Assembly: GCA_947040555.1 (NCBI GenBank)
Contig: CAMRBW010000017.1
Coordinates: 1-46,206, forward strand
Length of the DNA stretch: 46,206 nt
Reading direction: 5' to 3'
From: an uncultured Oceanospirillales bacterium
GTDB lineage: Bacteria > Pseudomonadota > Gammaproteobacteria > Pseudomonadales > Endozoicomonadaceae
In this document: in pieces, positions 1 to 45,929 of the stretch
How positions within the stretch are numbered: position 1 is the stretch's first letter
How the letters are laid out: each line of letters starts with the position of its first letter
Made by a program: the position numbers and the translations under genes
The notes under the pieces: model-generated
What the model was told of the DNA's origin: nothing
Seen by the model: the letters and a program-made list of their open reading frames with translations, nothing else
Database searches by the model: none

Positions 1-54
1 GGCAACGGGTTTTGATCCCGTCATGCGCAGGTTCGAATCCTGCCACCCCAGCCA
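1..54 (+). tRNA. tRNA-Gln(UUG), 3' part
   Basis: The window opens inside a tRNA. Bases 5-9 and 17-21 form the anticodon stem (ACGGG/CCCGT). The loop at 10-16 is TTTTGAT, giving anticodon TTG (glutamine, CAA codons). A T arm follows (GCAGG, TTCGAAT, CCTGC), and the 3' end reads ACCCCAGCCA, the same end as the E. coli tRNA-Gln, with CCA encoded. The acceptor 5' strand and D arm lie upstream of the window. Confidence 0.93.
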
Positions 55-180: not shown

Positions 181-1578
181 ATGGCTTCACTAGGTATTCA
201 CGGTAGTGGTTCCGCTCAACCCATCGGACCGGGTACAGGCAGTCCGGCCACAGAGCAAACCCCGACGAAGACGGTCCCCTTTGGCAGTGGCTCCCGCCCC
301 GTTTCCGTAACCGCGCCGTCCTCTTCTTTGCTGGTTCCCGATGATGCCGGGTCAACCTCACCTGAGAATACGGCTATCGGCGAACGCAAGACTGAGAATG
401 TGCAGGCCCGACTGAGAAACGTATTGAACCAGCTAAAAAGTAAGGCTCAGCCCGCTGCTGATGGTATTAAGGGGTTAGTTCTTGATATAGTGCACGCCGG
501 CAAGGCGTTTGGCGAATCCGCATTAACGATCACGAAAGCCTTTGTTCGCGATCCGAAAGATAGAACCCTGGATGCTGCAGGCAAGCTCAAGGGATATGCG
601 GGCGGTAAATTGACGACTGCCAAAAGAACCGGGATAGGGTTGTACGGCCAGGTTGCAAGAGGGCTTAGTGCTGTCAAGAGCGATCCCAAAGATGTCCTGA
701 GCAAAGCAGGAGAAAATATAAAAGGTAAGGCAACGTCCCTGAAAGAACGGGCTATTTCTCTGCCTGAAACTATCAAGAATAAAATACCGGCTCTTCCCCG
801 GGGAGACAGCCTGCCGAACCCAAAAGCACTGTTCAGTCGTTTTGCTAAGCCGCTTCCCTCGCCCTCAGCATCGGTTCAAAAAGCACTAAAGGTGATAAAA
901 GAGGTCAGCGTGAAATCAGCAGGTAAGGTGAATGGCATCAAGGAGGATCTTGAGCAAGCAAAAGCCGATCTTGCCAATCTCGAGGCACTTAACAAGCTAC
1001 TGGATAATAAATCTGCATTTAATGAAGGGGAGAACGTAAAGCTCAGCTGGAATAGCGAGAGCTCTTATATTGGGGGAGATAATCAGTTTGCGCTCCCCGG
1101 TCAGGTAGGGACACCTTTGAGACTGGTGAAAGATAATGAAGCTGACATTCGTAAGGCTCTGGAACCCGCTAAACAGAAGGTAAGTGAGTTAGAGTCACAG
1201 CTCGGAACTTTTAAAACCAGGGCAAAAGATGACGATAAACTGCTGCGTAAAAAGCTCTCTGCTTCTCTAAATAAAACAAATTATGTCGCCCAACAGGAAG
1301 CACTTGAAGAGCGCGCCAGCATCAAGGAAGAAATTTCCAGCGCCAAACAATCTGTGAAAGATATCTATAAGGGAAGAGCAACGACTGATGCAGCGTTCAA
1401 GAAAAAATCAGCGCCCCACCGACGTTTGGCGGACGCCAAGGAAAGCCTGAAAAACAATGCCGCAAAGATAAAAACACTTCAGATACAGGGTAAAGCTGAT
1501 CAGAAAGCCATTCAAACACAGTCCCGACCAGTGGCAGGAGGTGAACCCACCACTGAGCCGGATGATTCTGCTGAATAA
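181..1578 (+). CDS. Lysine-rich coiled-coil protein of unknown function
   Basis: I do not recognise this 465-residue protein. Residues 1-60 are a Gly/Ser/Thr/Pro-rich, apparently disordered head with no signal peptide. Residues 65-215 are Ala/Lys/Gly-rich and contain similar amphipathic segments (KAFVRDPKDRTLDAAGKLKG, then AVKSDPKDVLSKAGENIKGK), resembling late-embryogenesis-abundant proteins in composition. Heptad-like coiled coils occur near 245-275, 320-355 and 370-440. The tail (450-465) is acidic and threonine-rich. The ATG at 181 has AAAGGG eight bases upstream. There is no membrane segment or catalytic motif. It could be a structural protein, a stress protein or an unusual secreted protein; the sequence does not decide. 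It ends immediately before the convergent hpt stop codon. Confidence 0.7.
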   Translation: MASLGIHGSGSAQPIGPGTGSPATEQTPTKTVPFGSGSRPVSVTAPSSSLLVPDDAGSTSPENTAIGERKTENVQARLRNVLNQLKSKAQPAADGIKGLVLDIVHAGKAFGESALTITKAFVRDPKDRTLDAAGKLKGYAGGKLTTAKRTGIGLYGQVARGLSAVKSDPKDVLSKAGENIKGKATSLKERAISLPETIKNKIPALPRGDSLPNPKALFSRFAKPLPSPSASVQKALKVIKEVSVKSAGKVNGIKEDLEQAKADLANLEALNKLLDNKSAFNEGENVKLSWNSESSYIGGDNQFALPGQVGTPLRLVKDNEADIRKALEPAKQKVSELESQLGTFKTRAKDDDKLLRKKLSASLNKTNYVAQQEALEERASIKEEISSAKQSVKDIYKGRATTDAAFKKKSAPHRRLADAKESLKNNAAKIKTLQIQGKADQKAIQTQSRPVAGGEPTTEPDDSAE

Positions 1579-3069: not shown

Positions 3070-3786
3070 TTAGGGAGCGGTAGAGGTGATTCTGTGCCAG
3101 AAGGCAATCTTGCTGAGTAGCTCCAGCCAGTGAGGGTTGTCTTCCGGAAGTACGGAGCGGTCTTGAAGGGCGTTGCGCATCCCGATAATGGCTCCGGTGC
3201 CAATAGCGACTCCGACCACGACGGTCACCAGCAGAGCGGGTATAACCAACCCAATGGGTGACAGAACTGTTCCGATGACCCCTAAAACACCGCTGGCAAG
3301 GACTGCGTAAGTACCTGCATACAAAAACACGCTGAGCAGACTGTTGATAATCCGTTTTGGTGATGACAGGCAGTAGCACACTCTCTCCATCAGCCTTTTT
3401 TTTCCCTCTTCTCCCGTTTTCTGGCTACCGTCTGTTGGTGCGATAGGGTCTTGTGACTCAGTGCGGAAAACGCATGTCAGCCTCTCGTGCGAACTCGATC
3501 TCGATCTCGATCTCGATCTCGATCTCGATCTCGATCTCGATCTAGTCCGCCGTTTTCTATCTTTAGACTCAGAATTGCGGGATGTGTTATTTCCTGACTT
3601 TGGGGATGTATTCCGTTGGCACAGGTGCGGAGTCATCGTCGACGAGGGCAACAATGAGGTTGTTTTAGCAGCGCTGGGCGCTACGGTGCGTTCCTTGTGT
3701 TTCTTGCGTTTATGCTTACGTTTACGTGACTGCATAACGTCTGAAGAGATTATGCTGTTACCTTTGTTGGTTATATGATTGCCCAT
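3070..3786 (-). CDS. Membrane-hairpin protein with Arg-Ser repeat
   Basis: I do not recognise this 238-residue protein. Its N-terminal half is very basic and looks disordered, with a Lys/Arg cluster near residues 20-32 (RKRKHKRKKHKER). Around residues 75-100 there is a run of eight uninterrupted Arg-Ser dipeptides, encoded by a perfect hexanucleotide repeat. The C-terminal half has two hydrophobic segments (about 145-170 and 173-200) separated by a short turn, suggesting a membrane hairpin, and then an amphipathic tail. The start is set by AGGAGG seven bases before the ATG at 3786; an in-frame GTG two codons earlier is too close to it. It lies 24 bases downstream of the STAS gene in the same direction, so the two are probably co-transcribed. 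No catalytic motif is visible. Confidence 0.72.
   Translation of the reverse strand: MGNHITNKGNSIISSDVMQSRKRKHKRKKHKERTVAPSAAKTTSLLPSSTMTPHLCQRNTSPKSGNNTSRNSESKDRKRRTRSRSRSRSRSRSRSRSSSHERLTCVFRTESQDPIAPTDGSQKTGEEGKKRLMERVCYCLSSPKRIINSLLSVFLYAGTYAVLASGVLGVIGTVLSPIGLVIPALLVTVVVGVAIGTGAIIGMRNALQDRSVLPEDNPHWLELLSKIAFWHRITSTAP
3495..3542. repeat. Hexanucleotide tandem repeat (TCGATC)8
   Basis: Eight perfect copies of TCGATC lie inside the minus-strand membrane-protein gene. On the coding strand each unit gives one Arg-Ser dipeptide (AGA TCG). Gain or loss of units by slippage would keep the frame and change only the length of the Arg-Ser tract. Confidence 0.95.
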
Positions 3787-3810
3787 GATCACACCTCCTG
3801 ACTGTGTCGA

Positions 3811-4161
3811 TTAGTGCATTATCCGGTCAATGGCATCGCCTTTGTCGGGCACCGTCTCAATAAATTGATCCAGCCCGCTGAGATGGATCAAATCCCGTAT
3901 ATTGGTGCTGGTATTGCAGAGAACAATCCGCCCCTCGATTTCATTGGAGGCCAATATCCGTACTAAATCAGAGAGTATGGCCAGCCCATCGCTATTAATG
4001 GAAATCAGATTTTCGCAGTCGATGACTATGCGGGTGTGCCCGTTCTGCAACAGCGTGGTCACGGTCTCCTGCAGGTAGCTGGCAGTGCTGGCTAGCACAG
4101 TACCTGCCAGTGTCAGAACAGCCAGTTCATGGTACTCCTCAATATAGAGTTCAAGAGCCAC
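3811..4161 (-). CDS. STAS-domain protein (anti-sigma-factor-antagonist-like)
   Basis: A single STAS domain of 116 residues, the size of SpoIIAA/RsbV-type anti-sigma-factor antagonists and of related lipid-asymmetry and chemoreceptor-associated STAS proteins. The motif ISINSDGLAIL (residues 53-63) carries Ser57 where SpoIIAA-type proteins are phosphorylated, so regulation by a kinase/phosphatase pair is possible, though neither partner is in the window. The start is a GTG at 4161, with AAGGAGG six bases upstream; the open frame extends to 4188 but lacks a ribosome-binding site there. It precedes the Arg-Ser membrane-protein gene by 24 bases, and both have near-perfect Shine-Dalgarno sequences. 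The partner and pathway are unknown. Confidence 0.85.
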   Translation of the reverse strand: MALELYIEEYHELAVLTLAGTVLASTASYLQETVTTLLQNGHTRIVIDCENLISINSDGLAILSDLVRILASNEIEGRIVLCNTSTNIRDLIHLSGLDQFIETVPDKGDAIDRIMH

Positions 4162-4445
4162 GGTGCACCTCCTTAATAACTTATTCACCGAACTATTTTT
4201 TGGTCACTTTGATTAACTTATGGATTCAAGATACGGATTTAGTCCCCGCTCGTCTGTTGGACATAGGTCTGTGAGACATTGGTCTGAAATGGGCCTGGAA
4301 TGATGGGATAAGACGATTGCGGGGTGAGAAACAAAATCGGATTGCATGTATGTAATGTTGGGCATAACATCTGGCACAGTGCCAGCTTAACTCGGCTGGA
4401 TCAATCCTACTTTCGTTGAAGTGTGCGGTGTTTGGGTGTTTGGCC

Positions 4446-4937
4446 ATGAATTATCAGCTCTATGAATCCTTCTTGGGACCATTACTATTGTTCAGTGATG
4501 GCAGCGCTCTGAAGAGAGTGACCTTTCTTGCTTCCCGCCATGATTTTATTCCTGACGATGAACCGTTGAGTGGAGAGAGTGATGCTATCCTGACAGCGGC
4601 ATGCCAGCAGCTGGATGAATGGTTTTCAGGTATGCGACGTAATTTTGACCTGCCTCTGGCTCCGGAAGGTACACCTTTCCAGAAAGAGGTGTGGAAAGCA
4701 CTACAGACCATTCCTTACGGTACAACCTGCTCTTATGGTGAGTTGGCCGGTCAGCTTGGCAGGCCTTCTGCCTCCCGCGCTGTCGGGGCCGCTAATGGTT
4801 GTAATCCGATTGCACTGATTATTCCCTGCCACAGGGTGATTGGGGCAGACGGTTCTTTGACAGGCTATGCATTTGGCATAGAAAGAAAACAAAAGCTATT
4901 GAACTTTGAAGCGCAGTTGCAGCTTTCTCTGATATAG
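4446..4937 (+). CDS. ogt: Methylated-DNA-[protein]-cysteine S-methyltransferase
   Basis: Suicidal DNA-repair protein that moves the alkyl group from O6-alkylguanine (or O4-alkylthymine) to its own cysteine. The acceptor motif PCHRV is at residues 127-131 with Cys128. The helix-turn-helix and Asn-hinge region (SYGELAGQLG, then RAVGAANGCNP) precedes it. At 163 residues it has the usual Ogt length and lacks the Ada DNA-binding domain. The frame is open from a TTG at 4416, but the ATG at 4446 starts the recognisable domain; its ribosome-binding site is weak. The symbol ogt is by family resemblance. It is transcribed alone, divergent from the STAS unit. Confidence 0.92.
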   Translation: MNYQLYESFLGPLLLFSDGSALKRVTFLASRHDFIPDDEPLSGESDAILTAACQQLDEWFSGMRRNFDLPLAPEGTPFQKEVWKALQTIPYGTTCSYGELAGQLGRPSASRAVGAANGCNPIALIIPCHRVIGADGSLTGYAFGIERKQKLLNFEAQLQLSLI

Positions 4938-27821: not shown

Positions 27822-28814
27822 TTAACCACCAATAATGGACAGATTACGGGTGCTACCGGTCAGTCCATAATCGAGAAAGTGTTTATCATCTTTCAGGTTG
27901 AGCAGCTCTTGTATGCGGTGGATCAGCAGTGGTAGCTGGTCATCGCTCTGCAAAAGGTGGCGCAGGTTGTGACCTTGTTCAGCGAACAGGCACAGTTGTA
28001 GTTCGCCTTGACTATTCACCCGCAAGCGATTGCAATCAGCACAAAAGTCTTTGGAATAGGGCATGATCAGGCCGATCTGACCTTGGTAATCGGGATGCCA
28101 GAACTCTTGTGCCGGTCCCGCGTTGTCGGCACGAATGGATTGTGTCCAGCCTCGATCAGCAAGCTGCTGTCGTATAACCTGACCGGACAGATGGTGGCGA
28201 TTGAAAAAATCGATGGAATCACTGGTTTCCATCAGCTCAATCATGCGCACCGTAACGGGTTGATCTTTAATCCAACCAAGGAATCGATCCAGCTCTTTGT
28301 CGTTCATACCCTTCAGTAGAACTGTATTGACCTTTACCTTTGGCAGCCCCATGGCAAAAGCGTGATCGATACCTCGCAGAATTTCGTCCAGCCGGTTGTG
28401 GCCGGTAATGCGCTGGAACATGGCGGGCTCAAGGCTGTCGATGCTGACATTAAGATGCGTCATACCAGCGGAGAGCCAATTTCCGACCCGCTTATCCAGC
28501 TTGTAGCCATTAGTCGTCACGGCGACGGTATCGATGCCTGGTACATTGCGGACAGTCTGCAGAATATCCATGAAATCGAAGCGCAGGCTTGGCTCACCGC
28601 CACTAATGCGAACTTTGTTGGTACCGAGTATGGCAAAAGCGGTCACAATCCGGCGAATTTCATCCAGACCGATGGCTGTTTTGTGGGATGTCTCGGTGCA
28701 GCCATCCGGCAGACAGTACTGACAACTGAAGTTGCACAGATCCGTGACGGATAGACGCAAATAAGGAAACGTACGTCCCTGACGGTCTTGTAGTGGTTCT
28801 GGTAAAATGGGCAT
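27822..28814 (-). CDS. moaA: GTP 3',8-cyclase MoaA
   Basis: Radical-SAM enzyme that converts GTP to 3',8-cyclo-GTP, the first step of Moco synthesis. The N-terminal cluster motif has Cys27, Cys31 and Cys34 (CNFSCQYC). The second cluster ligands are Cys258, Cys261 and Cys275 (FCADCNRLRVN to LQLC). The C-terminal Gly-Gly needed for activity is present. The length is 330 residues. The frame is open to 28886, but the ATG at 28814 is chosen because GGAAAGG lies upstream and the Moco riboswitch occupies the sequence before it. A MoaC gene is not in the window. Confidence 0.96.
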   Translation of the reverse strand: MPILPEPLQDRQGRTFPYLRLSVTDLCNFSCQYCLPDGCTETSHKTAIGLDEIRRIVTAFAILGTNKVRISGGEPSLRFDFMDILQTVRNVPGIDTVAVTTNGYKLDKRVGNWLSAGMTHLNVSIDSLEPAMFQRITGHNRLDEILRGIDHAFAMGLPKVKVNTVLLKGMNDKELDRFLGWIKDQPVTVRMIELMETSDSIDFFNRHHLSGQVIRQQLADRGWTQSIRADNAGPAQEFWHPDYQGQIGLIMPYSKDFCADCNRLRVNSQGELQLCLFAEQGHNLRHLLQSDDQLPLLIHRIQELLNLKDDKHFLDYGLTGSTRNLSIIGG

Positions 28815-28820
28815 TGAACA

Positions 28821-28944
28821 CCTTTCCAAAATACTAAGGGAGGCTGCAGGATTTCTCGCTGCAACCCGGTGGCGATTTCTCACCACGGCGAACCCCCCCC
28901 TGTCCGATCCATTTACCGATCGGGTTTAGAGAGAGTTGCTCGGC
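28821..28944 (-). promoter_or_regulatory. Moco RNA motif (molybdenum-cofactor riboswitch)
   Basis: Read on the minus strand, the moaA leader closely follows the E. coli moaA Moco RNA: GCCACCGGG (865-873 of the 28000 block), a 7-bp hairpin GTTGCAG/CTGCAGC with a GAAA-containing loop, then GCCTCCC (838-844) and the ribosome-binding site GGAAAGG (821-827). E. coli has GCCACCAGGG, a hairpin, GCCTCCC and TGGAAAGGTG in the same order. A run of eight G on the RNA (893-900) lies in the upstream arm. By analogy, bound cofactor or tungsten cofactor would hide the ribosome-binding site and lower expression. The upstream limit is approximate. Confidence 0.86.
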
Positions 28945-29041
28945 GCTCGAACTTAATAATTAAAATTATAATATAAGCAGGTAAAGCATAGCAGGTGTTA
29001 ACTTAAACGACATCTGCCGCAAATAATAACAATAGGCCAGT

Positions 29042-43721: not shown

Positions 43722-43761
43722 AAAAAAGCCGCGCTTTTATTTCTCAGGGCGCGGCTTTTTT
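43722..43761. terminator. Bidirectional terminator between groEL and the FG-GAP gene
   Basis: A 13-bp stem, AAAAAAGCCGCGC (43722-43734) with GCGCGGCTTTTTT (43749-43761), has T runs at both ends. It serves groEL rightward. Leftward, one arm lies inside the last codons of the facing gene and the stop codon falls in the loop. Confidence 0.93.
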
Positions 43762-45929
43762 ATATGTGTGATTTTTTTTCGGAAAATCGACGGAAGACCT
43801 CGTTTCCCTTGGAGTTGTGACCACCACTTTGTGGGTGCCTTGTTAATTTTCTTTGATTTTTTCAGAATACCGCTATTTTCAATAGAGAATATAAAAATAT
43901 CCTCATCAAAATTTCTTATCAAAATCAGGTCATCACTCTTTTGTGATGTCGTCTGAACCTTTCCTGATGCTAATATTCCGTGCTCCAGATTTTTCGGGAA
44001 AAACACTCTGTTTTTTGATTTGATCTGGCCATTGTCTAAAGTGTAAATGTAAAAATCACCATCAAAATTACGATTAGCTATGAACTCATAAATTCCATCG
44101 CCATCAAAATCACCGGCGGTAATTCCTGTCCATTGTGATTGTGGCCCTGGGGATTTATTGGAGGCCACATACTTTATCTGACCATTATCTAATTCATGGA
44201 TATAGAAGTTGCCATCACTATTTCGAACAGATACAAATTCGTCTATCCCGTCCCCATCAAAATCACTGGCTGCAATTCCTGCCCATTGAGATGATGAGTT
44301 AGAGGATGTGCTGGAGGCCACATGCTTTATCTGGCCATCATCTAGTTCATAGATGTAGAAGTTGTCATCCAAATTGCTGACAGCTACAAATTCACCTTTA
44401 CCGTCCCCATCAAAATCACCGGCAGCGACTCCTGCCCATTGTGATGTTGAATCTGGAAGTGTGTTGGAGGTCACAAGCTTTATCTGGCCATCATCTAATT
44501 CATAGATGTAAAAATTGCCATCGGAATTGCTGACGGCTATAAATTCATCTCTGCCGTTTCCATTAAAATCACTGGCGGCAACTCCTGCCCATTGTGATGT
44601 TGGGTCTGGGGGGGTGTGACTCGCTATAGTTATGATTTCATTGTCACTGTCCAGTTTGTATATATGAAAACTACCGTCCAGATTTCTGGCGGAAATGATC
44701 TCATCAATACCATCCCCATCGAAATCACCAGTAGCTGCTCCTGCAAATTCTGAATTAGCTTCCGCTGTGCGGTTAACAGCAATTGGATTAAATGCTTTTT
44801 GGAGTCGTTGTAAGTTGGCGATAGCGAGAAAGCTGCTTGCAGAAAGCTCTTTCGTGGATTGATAGATAGCTTTATCCATGAAAATATCTGCCACGACATG
44901 ATAAATGTCTCTATCAAAACTAGAAATATTTAACCATCTTCCTGTTTGGTTGATGTGAGAGTTTGTTTCTCCACTTCCATCTACCTTATCTGTTATTTTA
45001 AGTGGCTCAATGTATATATTGTTTTTAAATGTAGAAGCAAAACGCTCCATATCTGTTTTGTTAAATAGTAAGTCATGTTGGTAGCATAGAATAGAAAAAT
45101 CAACTTCTATAGCGGCGTGGGATATATCTTCTGTAATGTTAGTGTGATTAAAGTAATTCCAAATGTATGAATTATTATCGCTGTTTAGTACAAGGTTGTT
45201 ATGGAAATGAATTGCTATGTTCACAGTTTTATACAAGTAATCAGATCTGCCCGTTGATAAATACATCATCAGAAGTGTACGACCCATGGCCGCCTGTTGG
45301 TTAAATGGTAGAACGATGTTCGGATAATGAATGACAGAAGTGTTACGAAATCGATATACGAGTTCAGTGTCATCCCACTGGTCATCATGGGATGCAATTG
45401 TTTCAGCTATTTTGTTGTTTAGCCAGTGAGCAACATCAAGAAACATTTTCCCTGAATAAGAGTAGTGGCCCTGTAGATCTGGGTTATTTATGATTAATTG
45501 TGAAAAATCTGCCATTGGATAGGTAATCATGCCACTATGGACAACCCATGCATAAGGTTCATTATTTTTTGAATACTTTGTAGAAGCCCACGTGGGCCCG
45601 CTAATACCTCTATAATCTAATCTGCCTTGATAATCATCGCGTTGGTTAATAATGTTTTCAGTATGAGCAATCAGTTTTTTAAGGTACTCAATGTCATTAG
45701 TGGCCCTATACATTGCCATATAGGACATCATGATATAGCTTTCCCCCCACGCCAAACTTCCGTTAAGGTTGTCATAGTTCGCATAACCATTGCCGTTGTT
45801 TAATAAGTCATTGAACCTGTCGAAGGCCGTTTTAAAGGTATTTGCCGATAGCTCGTTATTGATAGTGCTCAGGGAAAATAATATTCCTGAAAAAAAGAGA
45901 GTGAGTAATTTTTTGTTTTTATGTCCCAT
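43737..45929 (-). CDS. Secreted protein with helical N-terminal domain and FG-GAP repeats
   Basis: A 730-residue exported protein. The signal peptide covers residues 1-30 (ending ELSA). Residues 31-385 look like an all-helical domain, perhaps an alpha/alpha toroid of the kind found in carbohydrate-active enzymes (LAWGESYIMMSYMAMYRATN, and aromatic-rich loops such as SYIWNYFNH); I cannot name a family or catalytic residues. Residues about 390-660 hold five tandem repeats of 51-52 residues with the calcium-binding FG-GAP/VCBS-type motif GDFDGDG, and the C-terminus is basic. It could bind or degrade polysaccharide or attach to host surfaces. GAGGT precedes the ATG. The gene is more AT-rich than groEL. 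Confidence 0.8.
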   Translation of the reverse strand: MGHKNKKLLTLFFSGILFSLSTINNELSANTFKTAFDRFNDLLNNGNGYANYDNLNGSLAWGESYIMMSYMAMYRATNDIEYLKKLIAHTENIINQRDDYQGRLDYRGISGPTWASTKYSKNNEPYAWVVHSGMITYPMADFSQLIINNPDLQGHYSYSGKMFLDVAHWLNNKIAETIASHDDQWDDTELVYRFRNTSVIHYPNIVLPFNQQAAMGRTLLMMYLSTGRSDYLYKTVNIAIHFHNNLVLNSDNNSYIWNYFNHTNITEDISHAAIEVDFSILCYQHDLLFNKTDMERFASTFKNNIYIEPLKITDKVDGSGETNSHINQTGRWLNISSFDRDIYHVVADIFMDKAIYQSTKELSASSFLAIANLQRLQKAFNPIAVNRTAEANSEFAGAATGDFDGDGIDEIISARNLDGSFHIYKLDSDNEIITIASHTPPDPTSQWAGVAASDFNGNGRDEFIAVSNSDGNFYIYELDDGQIKLVTSNTLPDSTSQWAGVAAGDFDGDGKGEFVAVSNLDDNFYIYELDDGQIKHVASSTSSNSSSQWAGIAASDFDGDGIDEFVSVRNSDGNFYIHELDNGQIKYVASNKSPGPQSQWTGITAGDFDGDGIYEFIANRNFDGDFYIYTLDNGQIKSKNRVFFPKNLEHGILASGKVQTTSQKSDDLILIRNFDEDIFIFSIENSGILKKSKKINKAPTKWWSQLQGKRGLPSIFRKKITHIKKPRPEK
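44095..44790 (-). repeat. Tandem repeats of 153-156 bp encoding FG-GAP-like blades
   Basis: The DFDGDG-coding segment recurs with its left edge at 44095, 44248, 44401, 44554 and 44710, a period of 153, 153, 153 and 156 bases. Each unit encodes a block with SQWAG, a calcium-loop motif and FYIYELDDGQIK. The middle three are most alike, suggesting recent duplication or gene conversion. A degenerate sixth unit seems to lie at 43880-44000. Confidence 0.85.

What the first reader, a model, noticed from the sequence alone, without database searches (positions are those of the whole stretch)
3070..4161. STAS protein coupled to a membrane protein with an SR-type repeat
A SpoIIAA-like STAS protein with Ser57 at the phosphorylation position sits 24 bases before a protein with a basic tail, eight Arg-Ser dipeptides and a two-helix membrane hairpin. 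Arg-Ser repeats are typical of eukaryotic splicing-related proteins and are rare in bacteria, and the hairpin shape recalls Inc-type proteins. Both genes have near-perfect ribosome-binding sites. The pair could be a signalling module, a translation- or nucleic-acid-binding membrane protein with a switch, or a host-directed protein.
Basis: partly seen in the sequence, partly recalled or inferred. Interest (0 to 1): 0.65.

Follow-up and report, generated by a model that had tools for sequence, protein, structure and literature searches.

The report
STAS switch gene with membrane-hairpin partner
A sponge-bacterium genus carries a conserved two-gene unit, a small switch-type protein next to an unknown membrane-hairpin protein; the eye-catching "splicing-factor-like" Arg-Ser tract in the second protein is a six-base DNA stutter found in this one genome only, so the pair is real but the eukaryote-like feature is most likely incidental.

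Summary
STAS gene: 4161-3811 (-), 116 aa. Hairpin protein ("HP"): 3786-3070 (-), 238 aa, 24 nt downstream. Both have near-consensus ribosome-binding sites, and HP has eight tandem Arg-Ser dipeptides. Ser57 aligns with the phosphorylated Ser58 of SpoIIAA.

The genus is the Parendozoicomonas group (Endozoicomonadaceae; sponge symbionts). All six genomes held for this genus have the pair adjacent (overlap of 4 nt to gap of 26 nt) with strong ribosome-binding sites. HP occurs in none of the 31 other family genomes searched. The STAS gene is older: it sits alone, often beside uracil salvage genes, in much of the family. HP is therefore a genus-level addition to an existing STAS locus.

The Arg-Ser tract is a perfect (AGATCG)8 microsatellite found only in this genome. 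Its five orthologues lack it; three of the five have other Lys/Arg clusters and one tail is acidic. What is conserved is an uncharged 55-61 aa two-helix hairpin and a disordered tail.

Most likely HP is a membrane dock for the STAS protein, possibly switched at Ser57; interaction is inferred, not shown. The host-directed (Inc-like) reading is not excluded: the genome has a type III secretion system. The SR-protein reading is not supported.

The parts
3811..4161 (-). STAS gene, 116 aa, GTG start, SpoIIAA/RsbV-like anti-sigma-antagonist superfamily; Ser57 (codon at 3991-3993) at the phospho-acceptor position, motif SINSDGLA
   Evidence: Pfam STAS 1.4e-13, TIGR00377 above cut-off; alignment to SpoIIAA structures; orthologues in 6/6 genus genomes and most of the family
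4166..4174 (-). ribosome-binding site of the STAS gene, AAGGAGGTG
   Evidence: sequence; strong site at similar spacing in all six genomes
3070..3786 (-). hairpin-protein gene (HP), 238 aa: disordered, basic, Ser-rich N-terminal tail; two-helix uncharged hairpin; C-terminal helix after a conserved LP...W region
   Evidence: ORF; orthologues directly downstream of STAS in 6/6 genus genomes, 28-41% identical over the hairpin half; model
3792..3799 (-). ribosome-binding site of HP, AGGAGGTG, inside the 24-nt gap (3787-3810)
   Evidence: sequence
3490..3543 (-). hexanucleotide microsatellite (AGATCG on the coding strand, 9 copies, 97%) encoding the Arg-Ser tract, HP residues 82-99
   Evidence: TRF, codon listing; present in this genome only among 57
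3688..3729 (-). basic cluster SRKRKHKRKKHKER, HP residues 20-33
   Evidence: 8 Lys/Arg in 10 residues, against a maximum of 6 in 30 other window proteins; 6-8 in three of five orthologues
3187..3360 (-). uncharged two-helix hairpin, about HP residues 143-200 (helices 143-178 and 184-207 in the model)
   Evidence: 58-residue charge-free stretch; 55-61 in all six orthologues; model

Best explanation
The locus is a two-gene operon. Gene 1 is an old, family-wide orphan STAS regulator of the anti-sigma-antagonist superfamily. Gene 2 is a genus-specific inner-membrane protein whose two-helix hairpin anchors a long disordered, usually basic N-terminal tail in the cytoplasm. My committed reading is that HP serves as a membrane docking partner for the STAS protein, so that the STAS protein is held at or released from the membrane, plausibly according to the phosphorylation state of Ser57. 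The Arg-Ser tract is a slippage-generated microsatellite that lengthens an already basic, Ser-rich linker; it can vary in length without breaking the frame (six bases are two codons) and has no dedicated splicing-like function. Shown: the gene pair, its conservation, the STAS family, the Ser57 alignment, the hairpin, the microsatellite and its restriction to one genome. Inferred: co-transcription, membrane localisation and N-in/C-in topology, binding between the two proteins, the phospho-switch, and the neutrality of the tract. The confidence value applies to the mechanism; the anatomy itself is about 0.9.
For: The pair is adjacent in the same order in all six genus genomes, with gaps of 19-26 nt or a 4-nt overlap and strong Shine-Dalgarno sites before both genes, while most other genes in the window have weaker sites. 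HP is absent from the 31 other family genomes, and the STAS gene stands without HP in the other genera, often next to the NCS2 permease or upp genes, so HP joined an existing STAS locus. Superfamily membership and phospho-site alignment. Hairpin conserved as 55-61 uncharged residues although overall identity is only 20-27%. Precedent for a STAS protein docking on a membrane-bound partner in a Ser-dependent way: Pseudomonas HsbA with the diguanylate cyclase HsbD (PMC5085249). Microsatellite origin: eight identical codon pairs using minority codons (AGA 12% of Arg, TCG 8% of Ser), absent from the other 56 genomes.
Against: Adjacency does not prove binding. No kinase or phosphatase gene is linked; the genome's only strong stand-alone RsbW-type kinase hit lies in its own SpoIIE-STAS cluster on contig C58. 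Ser57 is Gly in two orthologues and residue 58 is acidic in most. The STAS gene is kept without HP in the rest of the family, so HP is not an obligatory partner. The P. callyspongiae tail is acidic rather than basic, so a charge-based role of the tail is not universal.
Confidence: 0.4

Rival explanations
1. HP is a host-directed, type III secreted protein that inserts its hairpin into a host membrane (Inc-like), and the STAS gene is merely its operon neighbour or regulates it. The basic and Arg-Ser tail would then face host cytosol.
For: The genome encodes a non-flagellar type III HrcV/SctV well above cut-off (955 vs 692 bits). The hairpin matches the published Inc definition of two helices and a short uncharged loop, about 40-60 hydrophobic residues (PMC3048545). 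The first 25 residues of all six orthologues are rich in Ser/Thr/Asn/Gln/His/Pro and poor in hydrophobic residues. HP is genus-specific and divergent, as effectors often are. The family lives in animals (PMC12491435).
Against: No homology to any Inc or effector family. HP is not near the secretion locus (contig C10 vs C17) and no chaperone-like gene is adjacent. Tight coupling to a cytoplasmic regulator is unusual for an effector. Type III HrcV is equally present in genera without HP. N-terminal composition is only suggestive because the whole tail is predicted disordered.
Confidence: 0.2
2. HP is a self-contained envelope or stress protein (holin-like or lipid-binding hairpin) that shares transcription with the STAS gene but has no direct contact with it.
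For: Weak resemblance of the hairpin to Phage_holin_3_6 (E=0.0099); glycine-rich hairpin; STAS kept without HP elsewhere.
Against: The holin score is below the curated cut-off (16.4 vs 28.4 bits) and is found in one of six orthologues only; no match in the phage collection and nothing convincing in PHROGs; adjacency kept in 6/6 genomes although the flanking genes differ.
Confidence: 0.3
3. The Arg-Ser tract is a selected SR-like domain, for example a substrate of host SR-protein kinases or a nuclear-import signal.
For: Arg-Ser tracts are recognised by transportin-3 in eukaryotes (PMC12075686); a member of the same family lives inside nuclei (PMC11521996; PMC12491435); three of five orthologues carry other strongly basic clusters.
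Against: Pure DNA microsatellite, one genome only, no RRM, no Arg-Ser tract in orthologues; similar hexamer arrays occur in many Pseudomonadota genomes, mostly where the Arg-Ser frame is short.
Confidence: 0.05

Closest known systems
SpoIIAA/RsbV anti-sigma-factor antagonists (TIGR00377 superfamily)
   Same: Fold family, length, and a Ser at the phospho-acceptor position two residues before the Gly-Leu
   Different: Acidic residue instead of Ser/Thr after the acceptor Ser, Asn/Ser instead of Asp before it; no linked kinase or phosphatase; far below the SpoIIAA equivalog cut-off; membrane-protein gene next door
HsbA-HsbD of Pseudomonas aeruginosa
   Same: A small STAS protein that works together with a membrane-bound protein (for the window pair this is inferred only)
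   Different: HsbD is a diguanylate cyclase; HP has no recognisable enzymatic domain. The window STAS is not the RssC/HsbA-like one: that is on contig C36 beside an RssB-like SpoIIE regulator
Chlamydial Inc proteins
   Same: Two-helix hairpin with short uncharged loop, little sequence conservation, type III system in the genome
   Different: Different phylum, no sequence homology, coupled to a STAS gene, secretion untested; one detectable gene per genome rather than dozens
Eukaryotic SR proteins and lamin B receptor
   Same: A run of Arg-Ser dipeptides (with membrane segments in lamin B receptor)
   Different: Tract is a single-genome DNA microsatellite, no RNA-recognition or other eukaryotic domain, not conserved in orthologues

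Membership tests
Anti-sigma-factor antagonist superfamily (STAS, TIGR00377) | profile score over curated cut-off | tested here: met
   57.3 vs 53.45 bits; Pfam STAS 50.9 vs 22.6 bits
Anti-sigma-factor antagonist superfamily (STAS, TIGR00377) | Ser or Thr at the phospho-acceptor position | tested here: met
   Ser57 aligns with SpoIIAA Ser58; Ser in 26 of 28 orthologues, Gly in 2
Partner-switching module | cognate HATPase_c_2 kinase and SpoIIE phosphatase encoded next to the STAS gene | tested here: not met
   none in the window; the genome's set is at C58 with its own STAS
Partner-switching module | phosphorylation-dependent exchange of partners | not testable with these tools
   needs biochemistry
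SpoIIAA equivalog (TIGR02886) | profile score over curated cut-off | tested here: not met
   34.5 vs 114.75 bits
SR proteins | Arg-Ser-rich region | tested here: met
   eight Arg-Ser at HP 82-97
SR proteins | RNA-recognition motif | tested here: not met
   no RRM in Pfam scans of HP or its orthologues
SR proteins | Arg-Ser region conserved in orthologues | tested here: not met
   alignment and hexamer search
Inc proteins | bilobed hairpin: two helices with a loop under 30 residues | tested here: met
   55-61 uncharged residues in six orthologues, two helices in the model; definition from PMC3048545
Inc proteins | type III secretion and insertion in the host-derived vacuole membrane | not testable with these tools
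   a type III apparatus gene exists, secretion not tested
Inc proteins | homology to a known Inc family | tested here: not met
   no Inc family hit in Pfam or NCBIfam
Holin superfamily III (PF07332) | profile score over curated cut-off | tested here: not met
   16.4 vs 28.4 bits, one of six orthologues

The most novel reading that the evidence does not exclude
HP is a type III translocated, Inc-like membrane protein of sponge symbionts whose basic, Arg-Ser-tunable tail acts in host cytosol or at the host nuclear envelope, with its production or release gated by the co-encoded STAS switch.
Probability: 0.06. Interest if true: 0.8.

Novelty: new variant of a known kind. Interest (0 to 1): 0.3.

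Why it matters
It gives an orphan STAS regulator, whose partners are unknown across a large family of marine animal symbionts, a concrete candidate membrane partner that arose in one genus. It also shows how a striking eukaryote-like motif can appear in a bacterial protein by slippage of a six-base repeat, a caution for motif-based calls of host mimicry.

Tried and rejected
SR-type domain as a conserved feature: rejected, because the hexamer array is in one genome of 57 and orthologues lack it. Ser57 as a misassigned phospho-site: considered, because the neighbouring residue is Asp, but rejected after alignment to SpoIIAA structures. Holin or phage origin: below cut-off and no phage match. HP in other families: one marginal hit (G362, E=8.5e-5) lies in a short frame antisense to a 287-aa ORF and is taken as chance; in that order-wide search only the best 11 candidates per genome were scored, so distant HP relatives could be missed. 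Rarity of Arg-Ser tracts by a degenerate DNA pattern over 398 genomes: the pattern is too loose (94 genomes match, and the reversed control also matches freely), so it shows only that hexamer arrays are common. Promoter and terminator scan: no informative sites. The structure model was too low in confidence overall (pLDDT 56) to be worth a fold search. Literature on bacterial Arg-Ser repeats: nothing relevant found. A first script for the STAS alignment failed on a naming error and was rerun.

Full report
What is there. On the minus strand, 4161-3811 encodes a 116-aa STAS protein and 3786-3070 a 238-aa protein (HP), separated by 24 nt. The Shine-Dalgarno sites are AAGGAGGTG and AGGAGGTG. The genes lie convergent to upp (2291-2995, uracil phosphoribosyltransferase) and divergent from an O6-methylguanine-DNA methyltransferase gene at about 4449-4937.

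Whose genome. Relatives of the STAS protein come from Parendozoicomonas haliclonae, P. callyspongiae, Parendozoicomonas sp. Alg238-R29, Sansalvadorimonas verongulae and a Kistimonas MAG. The window is thus from an unnamed member of this largely sponge-associated group in Endozoicomonadaceae; for the taxonomy see PMC12491435.

STAS protein. It passes the anti-sigma-antagonist superfamily cut-off but not that of the SpoIIAA equivalog. Ser57 aligns with the phosphorylated Ser58 of SpoIIAA; the chains 1TID/1TIL carry Ala at that position (that Ser58 is the phosphorylated residue and that Ala is the Ser58Ala variant is from general knowledge). Among 28 orthologues of the family, residue 57 is Ser in 26 and Gly in 2. 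Residue 58, Ser or Thr in classical antagonists, is Asp or Glu in 24. The genome contains five STAS loci: C58 (with a response-regulator SpoIIE phosphatase and an RsbW-type kinase), C36 (RssC-like, next to an RssB-like regulator), C23, C140 and the window's. The window STAS therefore has no linked kinase. It would have to use the C58 kinase or another, or act without phosphorylation.

HP. No family matches above cut-off. Five orthologues, 20-27% identical overall and 28-41% over the C-terminal half, sit directly downstream of STAS in every other genome of the genus. Gaps are 19-26 nt, or a 4-nt overlap in the Kistimonas MAG, with a strong ribosome-binding site. HP is missing from the 31 other family genomes and from an order-wide sample, with one marginal hit judged to be chance. 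In the other genera the STAS gene stands alone, often beside an NCS2 nucleobase permease gene or upp. So the STAS gene is ancestral at this locus and HP was added in the genus.

HP anatomy. Residues 1-124 are predicted disordered. They contain a basic cluster (20-33) and the Arg-Ser tract (82-97). The hairpin is the conserved part: an uncharged stretch of 55-61 residues in all six, modelled as two helices (143-178, 184-207) followed by a C-terminal helix 219-235. The Leu-Pro pair and the Trp after the hairpin are invariant in the six.

The Arg-Ser tract. Eight identical AGA-TCG codon pairs, a ninth with one change. AGA is 12% of Arg codons and TCG 8% of Ser codons in the window's genes; protein-level selection would not require identical minority codons, so expansion of the DNA repeat is the simplest origin. 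Four consecutive units occur nowhere else in this genome nor in 56 relatives. Orthologue tails are usually basic but have no such run, and the P. callyspongiae tail has a net charge of -13. A unit of six bases adds or removes Arg-Ser without a frameshift, so it can vary length but not switch the gene off. An analogous simple-repeat difference appears in the family's STAS proteins (a poly-Gln run near the C-terminus of about 17 in L025 against 4 in L026).

Mechanism. Commitment: HP is a membrane dock for the STAS protein (0.4). The gene pair and its conservation are shown; co-transcription, binding, membrane location and any role of Ser57 are inferred. HsbA, a STAS protein that binds a membrane-bound diguanylate cyclase depending on its Ser56 state (PMC5085249), is a precedent for the kind of mechanism, not evidence of membership. 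The main alternatives are an independent envelope protein (0.3) and an Inc-like secreted protein (0.2). The last has real circumstantial support: a type III apparatus gene, Inc geometry and an N-terminus rich in polar residues. However, the apparatus is just as present in genera without HP, and HP has no homology to known effectors.

Verdict. The SR-type interpretation fails. A small, tidy, genus-specific STAS plus membrane-hairpin pair remains, of moderate interest.

Noticed in passing
window 28803-28957 (-): Molybdenum cofactor (Moco) riboswitch, 50.8 bits against a gathering score of 36, at the start of a moaA-like radical-SAM gene (27822-28886) within a molybdenum gene cluster.
   Followed up: no
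window 181-1578 (+): A 465-aa low-complexity, Ala/Lys/Ser-rich protein with a Ser/Gly/Pro/Thr-rich N-terminus and no family match, next to hpt; it could be another lineage-specific or secreted protein.
   Followed up: partly
window 43737-45929 (-), repeats at 44101-44617: A 730-aa exported-looking protein with 3.4 copies of a 153-bp repeat (DFDGDGxxE units, FG-GAP-like by eye), just after groEL.
   Followed up: no
L025 and L026: Two genomes of another genus (g7) have nearly identical STAS orthologues that differ in a C-terminal poly-Gln run (about 17 against 4), another simple-repeat length change in this STAS lineage.
   Followed up: partly
L054 3512-5511: Complete response-regulator SpoIIE, STAS and RsbW-like kinase cluster in the same genome; a possible source of kinase for the window's orphan STAS.
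   Followed up: partly
window 1-51 (+): The window (a whole contig) begins inside a tRNA gene (Rfam match cut at its 5' end), so the contig probably breaks at a repeated tRNA.
   Followed up: no
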